Source: Thiotrichales bacterium 35-46-9
GTDB lineage: Bacteria; Pseudomonadota; Gammaproteobacteria; Thiomicrospirales; Thiomicrospiraceae
Reading direction: 5' to 3'
Assembly: GCA_002281095.1 (NCBI GenBank)
Contig: NCFI01000003.1
Span: 1-50,240, forward strand
DNA: 50,240 nt
This document shows, piece after piece, positions 26,164-29,873 of the stretch. Each line of letters begins with the position of its first letter. Within the stretch, counting starts at the first letter, position 1. The notes under the pieces are model-generated. The model worked only from the letters and a program-made list of their open reading frames with translations. It did no database searches and was not told the DNA's origin. The position numbers and the translations under genes were made by a program.

Positions 26164-27402
26164 ATGATCATTAAACCGCAACAACAATTGCTGGACGTGT
26201 ATGTCGGTCGGCAACCCATTTTCAATCGTGAGATGCAACTTTATGCTTATGAGCTGCTCTTTCGTAATGGGGATGGCCAGAATGCTGCCTCGGTAACCGC
26301 TGAAGACTCTGCTACAGCTCAAGTCATCGTGAACGCATTTGCTGAAATCGGTTTGTCGAACTTAGTCGGACAACAAAAAGCGTTTCTCAATTTTACAGAA
26401 CAGTTTTTATTGGCGGAAAACAACAGTATTTTCCCAATAAACCAAGTGGTTATTGAATTGCTAGAAACGATTCAACCGACGCCGGCGGTGATTAGTGCGG
26501 TACGTGGGTTGCGCGAAAAAGGTTATACCATCGCTTTAGATGATTTCTTTTACAGTGATGAGTTTAAGCCGTTAATTGCTTTGGCGAATATTATTAAAAT
26601 TGATATTCTGGCCGTTGGTGTACGGCAACTTCCCCAACACGTGCAAGCCATTCGTGCAACCAATGCTTCGGTTCGTTTGCTAGCGGAAAAAGTGGAAACG
26701 CAGGCACAGTTTGAGTTATGCAGGGCTTTGGGAATGGATTATTTTCAAGGTTACTTTTTTGCTCGCCCGCAAATTGTGAAAGGACATGGGTTAGCCAACA
26801 ATAAGCTTGCCATTCTGAATCTTTTGGCCAGTGTCTATGATCCTGACATTGATATGGGAGAGTTGGCCGAAATTATTGGCCACGATGTCGGCTTAACCCA
26901 TAAATTATTAGCTTTTGTACGTAGCTATCCTGGCAATGAAACCATCCAAATTAACTCTATTAAAGACGCAGTGTTGCGTTTCGGGCTACAAAAATTACAA
27001 AGTTGGGTCAGTATTTTGGTATTGGCAGGTAAAGATGATAAAACACCAGAACTGTTCAAAACTGCATTGATTCGTGCTCGCTTCGTACAGTTATTGGCAG
27101 AACATGCCGCCTTGCCGCAACGAGAAAGCTTTTTTATGGTCGGATTGTTTTCTTGTTTAGATGCCTTGATGGACGCGGATATGCCCACTTTAATGGCCGC
27201 CATGCCCTTGCATGAGTCGATCAAGAACGCGTTGATCGAGAAAACAGGTGTTATGGGTGAAGCACTGAGTTGCGTTTTAGCGATTGAACAAGGAAAGATT
27301 GAGCAGACCAGCTTCATGCAGATGAATGCGGGAGAAATTTCGAGCTATTACATGCAAGCCATGTGGTGGACAACGATTACCTGTGCCAACTTAGTTAAAT
27401 AA
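26164..27402 (+). CDS. EAL-HDOD signalling protein (YuxH type)
   Basis: This is a 412-residue soluble protein. The N-terminal half is an EAL-like domain that begins VYVGRQPIFNREMQLYAYELLFR and is probably catalytically dead: the signature reads ELL and the metal-binding motif is DDFFY instead of DDFGSG. The C-terminal half is an HDOD domain (about 200-390) with LAEIIGHDVGLTHKLLAFV and INSIKDAVLRFGLQKLQSW. Such proteins bind rather than degrade c-di-GMP or act as scaffolds; the pathway served here is unknown. It follows yggX after a 6-base gap and could be co-transcribed. No strong ribosome binding site is visible. Confidence 0.88.
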   Translation: MIIKPQQQLLDVYVGRQPIFNREMQLYAYELLFRNGDGQNAASVTAEDSATAQVIVNAFAEIGLSNLVGQQKAFLNFTEQFLLAENNSIFPINQVVIELLETIQPTPAVISAVRGLREKGYTIALDDFFYSDEFKPLIALANIIKIDILAVGVRQLPQHVQAIRATNASVRLLAEKVETQAQFELCRALGMDYFQGYFFARPQIVKGHGLANNKLAILNLLASVYDPDIDMGELAEIIGHDVGLTHKLLAFVRSYPGNETIQINSIKDAVLRFGLQKLQSWVSILVLAGKDDKTPELFKTALIRARFVQLLAEHAALPQRESFFMVGLFSCLDALMDADMPTLMAAMPLHESIKNALIEKTGVMGEALSCVLAIEQGKIEQTSFMQMNAGEISSYYMQAMWWTTITCANLVK

Positions 27403-27528
27403 CAGCGCATCGCTTAAAACCTCGTTTCGCTTTATTTTTAGCCCACCCGTTAAGGTTTTTTAGAGGTCAGCAATGTTAAATTTACCATCTATTGTGGTTG
27501 TTTTAATGTAATTAACTAGATATGGTTG

Positions 27529-27557
27529 TTGCAAAATCAGTCGCTTAGCGTTAAAAT
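27529..27557 (+). promoter_or_regulatory. Promoter of rpmE2
   Basis: TTGCAA (27529-27534), a 17-base spacer and TAAAAT (27552-27557), about 38 bases before the L31 start codon. The remaining space back to the EAL-HDOD gene shows no clear Zur-like palindrome. Confidence 0.6.
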
Positions 27558-27595
27558 GTTCGTTTATTTCAGACACCAAATAACAGGATTTTGCC

Positions 27596-27835
27596 ATGAA
27601 AGAAGGCATTCACCCAAAATACAATCCAGTGGTTTTCCAAGACATTACTACTGGTGATATGTTTATTACGCGTTCTACGATGAACACTAAGCAAACCATT
27701 GATGTTGATGGTAAAACTTACGGTTTAGTGCGTTTAGAGGTTTCTAGTTCGTCTCATCCTTTCTACACAGGTCAACAAACCTTAGTGGATACTGAAGGTC
27801 GTATCGAGAAATTCCGCAACCGTTACAAGCGTTAA
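27596..27835 (+). CDS. rpmE2: 50S ribosomal protein L31, type B (zinc-independent)
   Basis: This is a 79-residue protein beginning [28 protein letters not shown], with the C-terminal [28 protein letters not shown] common to L31. It contains no Cys, so it is the C-minus, zinc-free form often induced under zinc limitation. It may be the only L31 or a backup paralogue; this cannot be told here. A strong terminator-like hairpin lies 35 bases downstream, inside the next gene. Confidence 0.95.
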
Positions 27836-27849
27836 TAGCGGAGCTCTGC

Positions 27850-28689
27850 GTGAGCCTATTGCGTCCTGTAAAAAGCCTAGCTCTTGTCGCTGGGCTTTTT
27901 GCTTTTTGGGCAAGCACGACGACTTGGAACTCGGCTTTTGCTAGTGATGATTGTACGCCACTCAAAATTGATCAGCGTGTGAAAATTGATGTGGTGTATG
28001 ATGGCAGTACCTTCTTCGTTGGTGATACGGTTGTTATGTTAACGGGGGTGCATGTTCCGATTGCGGCACGACATTTGCGCGCGCCACAACCCTTGGGTAA
28101 AGCGGTTGCGCAGGCCGTTGGTGAGCTGGTACGTCGAAGTAAAGGTCAGTTAAATCTCGAGTATGACCAGTTAAGCTCTCAAAATGGGCGTGTCTTGGCG
28201 CATGCCTATTTGGGTGACGGACGTAATTTGGCGCTAACTTTGTTAGAAAATGGCTTTGCTTTGGTCAACACTCAGTTACCGAATAGTTTGCATGCTCAAT
28301 GTTACCGTCAGGCAGAATCGCGTGCTAGGGCAGCAAAATTGGGGTTGTGGCAATTTCAGGATATGGGCGTCCCAGTGGTTGAATCAAAAGCACTAACAGG
28401 AGAGCGTCGAGGCTTTCAAATTGTTCGTGGTACCATTGTGAATGCGGAACAAAAGGCACGCTATTTTTCCTTGACCATGGATACGGTGAGTTTGCGAATT
28501 CCTAATGAATCGTTGAAATGGTTTGATGTTAAGGCTTTGCTGGCTTTGAAAGGGAAAACAGTTGAAATTCGAGATGAATTTACCTTTTATCGTAATCATA
28601 TGGTGGCTTCCCTAGAGCATCCAGGTCAAATTGATTTATTGGCCGATGCTTTTTACGACGGTCTTGCTAACGCTAAGTCAAAGCGCTAA
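27850..28689 (+). CDS. Secreted protein with degenerate staphylococcal-nuclease fold
   Basis: This is a 279-residue protein. The GTG start has GGAG 6 bases upstream and gives a good signal peptide with cleavage after AFA (residue 31). Residues about 40-165 resemble the SNase (thermonuclease) fold: VVYDGSTFFVGDTVVMLTGVHVP, then QNGRVLAHAYLGDGRNLALTLLENGFALV, then AESRARAAKLGLWQF. The catalytic Arg and Glu of the RLIGIDAPE-type segment are replaced (MLTGVHVPIAAR), so nuclease activity is doubtful; the third Arg (GRVLA) is kept. A C-terminal domain of about 110 residues is unassigned. A terminator-like hairpin is encoded in the signal peptide codons. Confidence 0.78.
   Translation: MSLLRPVKSLALVAGLFAFWASTTTWNSAFASDDCTPLKIDQRVKIDVVYDGSTFFVGDTVVMLTGVHVPIAARHLRAPQPLGKAVAQAVGELVRRSKGQLNLEYDQLSSQNGRVLAHAYLGDGRNLALTLLENGFALVNTQLPNSLHAQCYRQAESRARAAKLGLWQFQDMGVPVVESKALTGERRGFQIVRGTIVNAEQKARYFSLTMDTVSLRIPNESLKWFDVKALLALKGKTVEIRDEFTFYRNHMVASLEHPGQIDLLADAFYDGLANAKSKR
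27870..27900 (+). terminator. Intrinsic terminator for rpmE2, inside the signal-peptide codons of the next gene
   Basis: A 12-base stem (AAAAAGCCTAGC / GCTGGGCTTTTT, one T-G wobble) with a 7-base loop ends in five T, then GC and five more T. It lies from codon 7 to codon 17 of the SNase-like gene. Confidence 0.7.
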
Positions 28690-28703
28690 AATCGTGCCTT
28701 GTT

Positions 28704-28731
28704 TTGGGCTTTGCGTGTGTCTCGTTATAAT
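28704..28731 (+). promoter_or_regulatory. Promoter of hemE
   Basis: A perfect -10 TATAAT (28726-28731) with TTGGGC at -35 (28704-28709), spacer 16. The transcript would start near 28738, about 60 bases before the hemE ATG. Confidence 0.7.
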
Positions 28732-28752
28732 GTTGAACAGATAAAACCTTAA

Positions 28753-28771
28753 CTCGGTGCGTAGCACCGAG
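28753..28771 (+). promoter_or_regulatory. Leader hairpin of hemE
   Basis: Perfect 8-base stem CTCGGTGC / GCACCGAG with a 3-base loop GTA in the 5' leader, with no T tract, so it is not a terminator. It ends 28 bases before the start codon; it may stabilise or regulate the mRNA. Confidence 0.5.
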
Positions 28772-28799
28772 AATTTCGACCCTTGTGAGAAAATTAATT

Positions 28800-29873
28800 A
28801 TGTCAGCTGAATTGAAAAATGATCGTTTTTTACGCGCCCTCCTCCGTCAACCGGTCGATACCACACCTGTTTGGATGATGCGTCAAGCGGGTCGTTATTT
28901 ACCAGAATATCGTGCTACCAGAGCCAAAGCAGGCAGCTTTATGGCGTTATGCACCAATCCTGAGTTGGCTTGTGAAGTCACCATTCAGCCATTAGCCCGT
29001 TATGATTTAGATGCGGCCATTTTATTTTCCGACATTCTCACCATTCCTGATGCCATGGGCTTGGGTCTGAGTTTTGCCCAAGGTGAAGGTCCACAGTTTG
29101 CTCGTCCTATTACCTGTAAAGCTGATGTCGATAAGATTGGTGTGCCCGATCCCGAAACGGAACTCAAGTATGTCATGGATGCGGTGCGAACCATTCGTCG
29201 CGAATTAGCTGGTCGTGTACCTTTGATTGGTTTTTCGGGTTCTCCTTGGACTTTGGCGACCTATATGGTTGAAGGTGGCAGCAGCAAAACCTTCTCAAAA
29301 ATCAAAGCGATGATGTATAACGAGCCAGCTACTCTGCATGCGTTGCTAGACAAGTTGGCACAATCGGTTACCAGTTATTTGAATGCGCAAATTGCGGCAG
29401 GTGCGCAAGCCGTACAAATTTTTGATACTTGGGGCGGTGCTTTATCAACGCCTGCTTTCCGTGAGTTTTCATTACGCTATATGCAGCAAATCAGCGCTGG
29501 GCTGACTAAGGAAGCTGATGGTCGTCGTGTACCGCTGATTGTCTTTACTAAAGGCGGTGGACAATGGATTGAGGAGATTGCTGTCGGTGCCGACTGTGTC
29601 GGACTGGATTGGACAGTTGAGCTGGGTGATATCCGTGCACGTTTGGGCGATAAAGTGGCGCTACAAGGCAATATGGATCCTGGCTTACTCTATGCTCAAC
29701 CCGAGATTATTGATGCGGAAGTAGCGCGTATTCTTGCCAGCTTCGGTCAACATACGGCAAATTCAGGTCATGTGTTTAACCTAGGGCATGGTATTCATCC
29801 GGAAATCAATCCTGAACATGTTAAGGCCTATGTCGATGCCGTTCACAAGCACGGTTTCCAATACCATCAATGA
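28800..29873 (+). CDS. hemE: Uroporphyrinogen decarboxylase
   Basis: It converts uroporphyrinogen III to coproporphyrinogen III in heme synthesis. It is 357 residues from the ATG at 28800, which matches the family start ([34 protein letters not shown]). The GTG at 28785 would add five unconserved residues. Conserved active-site segments include [41 protein letters not shown] and [15 protein letters not shown]. It has its own promoter and leader hairpin, and is followed by a hairpin terminator. Confidence 0.97.

What the first reader, a model, noticed from the sequence alone, without database searches (positions are those of the whole stretch)
27870..27900. Strong terminator encoded within a signal peptide
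The hairpin that best ends the rpmE2 transcript (12-base stem, T5-GC-T5 tail) lies inside codons 7-17 of the SNase-like gene. The same bases encode a good signal peptide. Expression of the secreted protein from the rpmE2 promoter would then depend on read-through or on ribosomes melting the hairpin, a possible attenuation mechanism linked to translation.
Basis: partly seen in the sequence, partly recalled or inferred. Interest (0 to 1): 0.5.

Follow-up and report, generated by a model that had tools for sequence, protein, structure and literature searches.

The report
Transcription terminator doubling as signal peptide
The stretch of DNA that looks like the transcription stop of a ribosomal-protein gene also spells the export signal of the secreted nuclease encoded next to it, and this double use is seen in dozens of families of the same bacterial class, so the nuclease can probably be made only when the stop signal is overrun.

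Summary
A 12-14 bp hairpin with a T5-GC-T5 tail (27868-27907; -21.1 kcal/mol, z -6.7) follows rpmE (L31) and lies inside codons 7-17 of an SNase-family gene (GTG 27850). The start codon is 5' of the hairpin, so full-length SNase mRNA from any promoter must pass it.

It is not local. All 4 held genomes of the genus keep it; 7 of 7 amino-acid-invariant stem codons are codon-invariant, against 25 of 123 after codon 20. Of 124 class loci with rpmE before SNase, 95 show a terminator, in 88 inside the open SNase frame (48 families). Strong terminators: 79 of 124 against 5.2 in synonymous shuffles; 0 of 394 later gene segments. Embedded SNase starts hug the rpmE stop and mostly lack a Shine-Dalgarno motif. 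Four SNases not directly beside rpmE lack it. Other genera of the window's family mostly have the terminator between the genes.

Best reading: rpmE's terminator doubles as signal-peptide code; SNase comes from read-through mRNA, probably translated by coupled ribosomes. Termination in the cell and any regulation are untested.

The parts
27529..27557 (+). possible rpmE promoter (TTGCAA-17-TAAAAT)
   Evidence: consensus scan only, 9 of 12; the scan found 9 sites against 10.1 in shuffles, so weak
27596..27835 (+). rpmE, 79-aa ribosomal protein L31; stop TAA 27833-27835
   Evidence: Pfam PF01197 96.6 bits; ORF
27840..27843 (+). GGAG, possible Shine-Dalgarno for the SNase start; the 14-nt rpmE-SNase spacer is 27836-27849
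   Evidence: sequence; spacer length kept in 4 of 4 genus genomes, GGAG in 2 of them
27850..28689 (+). SNase-family gene, 279 aa, GTG start; SNase domain at 28033-28353
   Evidence: PF00565 47.8 bits, residues 62-168; domain place also
27850..27942 (+). signal-peptide code (MSLLRPVKSLALVAGLFAFWASTTTWNSAFA, cleavage before SDDC judged by eye)
   Evidence: translation; no signal-peptide predictor was available
27868..27902 (+). terminator hairpin, main arms 27870-27881 and 27889-27900, loop 27882-27888
27896..27907 (+). U-tract T5-GC-T5 (the first five T also pair with the A-tract 27870-27874)

Best explanation
One stretch of DNA does two jobs. As RNA it is the intrinsic terminator of rpmE (A-tract, stem, U-tract). 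As code it is the n- and h-region of the signal peptide of the next gene, an exported SNase-family nuclease (A-tract = Lys, stem = Ser-Leu-Ala ... Ala-Gly, U-tract = Leu-Phe). Most rpmE transcripts would end at about 27900-27907. The SNase start is upstream of the hairpin, so only the read-through minority encodes SNase. These messages would be translated mainly by ribosomes that have just finished rpmE and restart at GTG 27850, 14 nt after its stop; a ribosome a few codons into SNase melts the 5' arm, which can also help the polymerase through. Shown by sequence: the hairpin, its place, its conservation at DNA level beyond the amino acids, its recurrence in the class, the close stop-start spacing, the lack of an SD motif at most class starts, and its absence in 4 SNase genes not directly beside rpmE. 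Inferred: that it terminates in the cell, the read-through share, and the ribosome's part.
For: Hairpin strength. Genus: stem arms AAAAAGCCTAG/CTGGGCTTTTT identical in 4 of 4 genomes at 57-88% SNase identity to the window; one in-frame codon inserted in the loop region of L002; the hairpin holds the densest 10-codon block of invariant codons in the gene. Class: 124 of 130 fetched SNase loci have rpmE upstream; a terminator in 95, inside the open SNase frame in 88, with an upstream start in 82 (46 families), and of these 42 (29 families) with no usable later start. Amino-acid-preserving codon shuffles: mean z -3.24 over 88 hairpins against -0.13 in 1792 other windows (hairpins pre-selected); without pre-selection 79 of 124 strong terminators against 5.2 expected, and 0 of 394 downstream segments. 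Reading phase of the 5' arm 57:13:4 of 74. SNase start overlapping or within 30 nt of the rpmE stop in 72 of 77; start to hairpin median 25 nt; SD motif at 4 of 77 SNase starts against 53 of 76 rpmE starts. U-run shorter when embedded (mean 5.2 of 77 against 6.4 of 29). A pyrL intrinsic terminator in a reporter cut downstream expression about 18-fold (PMC5021804, passages).
Against: No RNA data. 29 of 124 loci show no terminator by my scan, so many rpmE-SNase pairs do without it. In 40 of the 82 a later ATG/GTG/TTG exists and could be the start; the 88 include loci where a later start looks better (L113, L127). SD and spacing counts depend on my choice of start (ATG first, most upstream). The window itself has GGAG before its GTG, so independent initiation is possible there. 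Embedded hairpins are stronger than intergenic ones (median -14.8 against -9.5 kcal/mol; genome GC not corrected), which argues against a simply weakened terminator. In genus g28, L103 has lost the innermost stem pair (-15.8 to -12.2 kcal/mol). Only 4 control SNase loci lack rpmE, two of them near contig ends. Of 25 class rpmE loci without SNase, 8 show no terminator.
Confidence: 0.77

Rival explanations
1. Regulated attenuator: the hairpin is a switch. Ribosome supply or rpmE translation sets how often the polymerase reads through, so the nuclease is made under a particular condition. (A stricter version of the best explanation.)
For: Start-to-hairpin distance clusters around 25 nt, near a ribosome footprint (footprint size recalled), and starts sit at the rpmE stop; seen in dozens of families.
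Against: No sensor or alternative structure was found; Rfam gave no match, and I did not search further for an antiterminator. A constant leak explains the same data.
Confidence: 0.3
2. Overlap without control: close packing made the signal peptide and the terminator share bases, both are now held by selection, and the level of read-through does not matter. (A weaker version of the best explanation.)
For: Non-coding rpmE terminators already look like a signal peptide in at least one frame in 24 of 40 cases against 4.8 in shuffles, so the overlap is easy to reach; 29 of 124 loci have no terminator found.
Against: The arrangement is frequent over the class although other genera of the window's family show that the two can be separated.
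Confidence: 0.35
3. The hairpin is not a terminator but an mRNA element of SNase, for instance slowing early translation of an exported protein or protecting the RNA.
For: It lies at a fairly fixed place early in the ORF.
Against: A U-tract was required by my scan and is present in the window; 4 of 4 SNase genes with signal peptides but no rpmE directly upstream lack it; 12 of 25 rpmE loci without SNase have a terminator of score 25 or more (17 of any score); in other genera of the family an intergenic terminator stands at a similar distance from rpmE.
Confidence: 0.08
4. SNase really starts downstream of the hairpin and the upstream frame is open by chance.
For: 40 of 82 class loci have some later in-frame ATG/GTG/TTG; in genus g249 (L105) a good signal peptide starts at an ATG after the hairpin; in 6 of 35 family loci the frame is open across the terminator although a later start exists.
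Against: In the 4 genus loci no later start leaves a signal peptide; the hairpin lies in the open SNase frame in 88 of 95 loci with a terminator; 42 loci have no usable later start.
Confidence: 0.08

Closest known systems
E. coli frd-ampC: the frd operon terminator acts as the ampC attenuator
   Same: An upstream operon's terminator gates a downstream exported enzyme (PMC11838884 states the overlap; passages read; growth-rate control by ribosome binding is recalled).
   Different: There the hairpin lies in the leader and ampC has its own promoter (promoter overlap stated in the passage, leader position recalled); here it lies inside the signal-peptide codons, so no promoter can avoid it.
pyrBI (pyrL) translation-coupled attenuation
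   Same: Intrinsic terminator at a translated leader; a close ribosome prevents the hairpin (passages in PMC5021804).
   Different: pyrL is a leader peptide; here the terminator sits in the protein gene itself and belongs to the preceding gene.
ORF-internal 3' ends found by Term-seq (Adams et al. 2021, PMC7815308)
   Same: [quoted passage not shown] coli (abstract start in the listing; passages).
   Different: 'signal peptide' and 'rpmE' do not occur in its main text.
Termination-reinitiation coupling of gene pairs (PMC6728339, search listing only)
   Same: Stop and start codons close or overlapping; mostly no SD motif here.
   Different: Here combined with a terminator just inside the second gene.

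Membership tests
Intrinsic (Rho-independent) terminator | GC-containing stem followed by a U-tract | tested here: met
   class loci
Intrinsic (Rho-independent) terminator | RNA 3' ends at the U-tract in the cell | not testable with these tools
   no RNA data held
SNase (PF00565) protein | SNase domain above the curated cut-off | tested here: met
   47.8 bits, cut-off 21
Exported protein with a Sec signal peptide | n-region charge, hydrophobic core, A-x-A cleavage site | tested here: inconclusive
   seen by eye in the translation; no predictor run
Attenuator in the strict sense | termination responds to a signal | not testable with these tools
   needs expression data
Attenuator in the strict sense | terminator lies between any promoter and the body of the controlled gene | tested here: met
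   start codon is 5' of the hairpin and no usable later start in the 4 genus loci
Termination-reinitiation coupled pair | start overlapping or within tens of nt of the upstream stop | tested here: met
   14 nt in the window; 72 of 77 embedded loci within 30 nt or overlapping
Termination-reinitiation coupled pair | downstream translation depends on upstream translation | not testable with these tools
   needs mutants
Known Rfam riboregulator | match to an Rfam family | tested here: not met
   0 matches up to E 1 in 27300-28900

The most novel reading that the evidence does not exclude
Across the class the rpmE terminator is a ribosome-gated switch written into the signal peptide of an exported nuclease, linking the enzyme's output to L31 translation; and it shows a general route by which export signals arise: the A-tract, stem and U-tract of a terminator read as lysine, small residues and a Phe/Leu-rich core, so a gene that extends upstream through its neighbour's terminator gains a signal peptide and a built-in brake at once.
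Probability: 0.3. Interest if true: 0.86.

Novelty: new variant of a known kind. Interest (0 to 1): 0.68.

Why it matters
A terminator that is also protein code of the next gene ties transcription, translation and export signals into one set of bases, and it is found in dozens of bacterial families. Methods that expect terminators only between genes would miss such sites. It makes two questions testable with simple reporters: how well ribosomes protect genes from terminators in their own first codons, and where signal peptides come from. Ten answered searches of the open paper library listed no paper that I recognised as describing it; I judged by titles, abstract starts and the passages read, and most subscription papers are not in that library.

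Tried and rejected
Rejected: a chance hairpin; a purely local feature; an independent promoter as a way round the hairpin (geometry; in the 4-16 nt before the start the 4 genus loci show no -10-like hexamer of 5 of 6 or better). Rfam gave nothing. My first idea, that the genus had newly captured an intergenic family terminator, was dropped when the class survey showed embedding widely and the tree put the genus beside all other genera of its family; the root is not inferred, so 'ancestral' is likely, not shown. In that tree genus g28, which I read as embedded, was labelled intergenic by my distance rule, and g28 is not among the 77 embedded loci. The covariation count on equal-length hairpins (123 of 144 and 172 of 176 paired cells against 102.4 and 158.7 when 3' arms are dealt anew) is biased, since hairpins were picked for pairing. 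The class sample is 130 of the 150 match rows listed, a cut list; 20 rows, mostly low-scoring or fragmentary, were left out before counting. The 29 intergenic loci hold two places twice (G011, G004) and 25 come from the window's family; draws partly on the same set. A P. aeruginosa 3'-end paper (PMC8297930, passages) has no mention of rpmE in its main text; the locus tags PA5048 and PA5049 tried there were recalled. Structure prediction and fold search were not used.

Full report
What is there. The window (contig 19 of a 1.83 Mb, 144-contig genome) carries rpmE, 27596-27835, and, 14 nt on, a 279-aa SNase-family gene with GTG start at 27850. Bases 27868-27902 fold into a hairpin of -21.1 kcal/mol, z -6.7, followed by a T-rich tail. 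GTG 27850 is 5' of the hairpin. A full-length SNase message must contain it, whichever promoter is used.

The genus. Only 4 genomes of the genus are held. All 4 keep the 14-nt spacer, the GTG and the hairpin, at 57-88% SNase identity to the window. Of 8 stem codons 7 are amino-acid-invariant, and all 7 are codon-invariant; after codon 20 it is 25 of 123, Met and Trp excluded (Fisher p 3e-5). The hairpin holds the densest 10-codon block of invariant codons in the gene. L002 has one extra codon, in the loop region and in frame. So the bases are held for more than the amino acids.

The family. 57 of 62 family genomes have an SNase match. In the 30 loci (29 of the window's family, one other) an rpmE match lies in all 30, and in the printed, oriented stretches rpmE precedes SNase. 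In 35 loci of the other genera the scan puts the terminator outside the open SNase frame in 24, inside it but with a later start in 6, and finds none in 5, although by eye L008 and L017 do have one with a long loop. By my choice of start SNase begins 69-455 nt after the rpmE stop (L025, 882, is an outlier), and 18 of 34 have a -10-like hexamer (5 of 6 or better) 4-16 nt before it, against 10% in shuffles and 6 of 77 embedded loci.

The class. SNase matches at E 0.001 were found in 198 of 370 class genomes, some of them weak, and rpmE in 350 of 370. I took 130 of the 150 listed SNase rows (30 loci plus 100 stretches); 124, from 124 genomes and 60 families, have rpmE upstream. They include the window and three others of its family. 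A terminator was found in 95; in 88 (48 families) it lies in the open SNase frame before the conserved Cys, in 82 (46 families) with a start codon upstream, and in 42 of these (29 families) with no later start that would leave 15 codons before that Cys. The peptide reads roughly [K/R]-A-[L/P/S]-x-x-[G/S]-A-[L/F]-F, with varied stem sequences (my reading). In 29 no terminator was found. A test without pre-selection compared all 124 with copies whose codons were shuffled synonymously: strong terminators in 79 against 5.2 expected; 0 of 394 same-length segments further down the same genes. For the 88 embedded hairpins, which are pre-selected, the mean z against synonymous shuffles is -3.24, against -0.13 for 1792 other windows, and the hairpin is the most extreme window of its gene in 71 of 88.

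Controls. Six of the 130 SNase loci have no rpmE match in the DNA fetched. Two look like other SNase types; the other four have signal peptides and no terminator of score 25 or more (best 17.9), but two of them hold only about 144 and 201 nt upstream because the contig ends. Of 25 class rpmE loci without an SNase match, 17 show a terminator candidate of any score within 150 nt, 12 of score 25 or more, and 8 none. The hairpin thus tends to go with rpmE and enters the signal peptide when SNase abuts it.

Another lineage. Genus g28 (4 genomes, L101-L104) has ATG 9 nt after the rpmE stop and the hairpin in RVPRKGALFVLG; later GTG and TTG codons exist there, so its start is less certain. In L103 one base change costs the innermost stem pair (-15.8 to -12.2 kcal/mol). 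In sister genus g249 a start after the hairpin looks more likely (L105), a result against universal embedding.

How it likely works. Of 77 embedded loci (most from the class sample, plus L002-L004 and L107) SNase starts overlap the rpmE stop in 15, lie 0-15 nt after it in 44, 16-30 in 13 and farther in 5; the hairpin base is a median 25 nt from the start; an SD motif is seen at 4 of 77 SNase starts but 53 of 76 rpmE starts. This fits ribosomes restarting after rpmE; the window, with its GGAG, could also initiate anew. U-runs are shorter when embedded (mean 5.2 against 6.4, p 1.4e-6), but stems are stronger, so net strength cannot be judged. In a published reporter the pyrL terminator lowered downstream expression about 18-fold, and ribosome stalling in an efp mutant lowered it further (PMC5021804, passages). 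So I expect low, read-through-driven SNase with some protection by ribosomes. That part is inference.

Origin. A quick SNase tree of 163 rows (LG+G4, no bootstrap) puts the window genus beside all 35 other family rows (family node 97*, the 35 rows 89); the labels embedded, intergenic and none need 41 changes against 71.8 in shuffles. The window genus may keep an old arrangement that its sister genera left, but the root is not inferred and 54 of 160 inner branches are open. Non-coding rpmE terminators translated in three frames give a signal-like frame (K/R, then a hydrophobic 8-mer) in 24 of 40 cases against 4.8 (sd 2.0) in dinucleotide shuffles. Terminators are built in a way that reads as a signal peptide, which may explain how the overlap arose and recurs.

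Literature. Ten answered searches of the open library (one search failed for its wording) listed no paper that I recognised as describing this arrangement. Nearest are frd-ampC, pyrL and ORF-internal 3' ends.

Changes after checking: the rpmE-without-SNase control was recounted (17 of 25, not 18), the g28 base change was found to lie in the stem, not the loop, and confidence was lowered slightly (0.78 to 0.77) for these.

Noticed in passing
L005, L011, L012, L021, L029, L042 (upstream of SNase): In other genera of the family SNase has a TACAAT -10-like hexamer only 6-7 nt before its ATG, hinting at near-leaderless mRNAs.
   Followed up: partly
L025: In G035 something seems to lie between rpmE and SNase: the SNase Cys codon is 972 nt after the rpmE stop, with a long open frame starting soon after rpmE.
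   Followed up: no
L022 (G034): The SNase match in this genome contains an in-frame TAA.
   Followed up: no
L240 (G000:C3:13856-14158): The genome has a second SNase-domain gene with an ordinary-looking signal peptide and no terminator found in it.
   Followed up: partly
L113, L023, L024 (genus g7): Here the SNase frame is open across the terminator although a better start lies after it; an open frame alone is not proof of embedding.
   Followed up: yes
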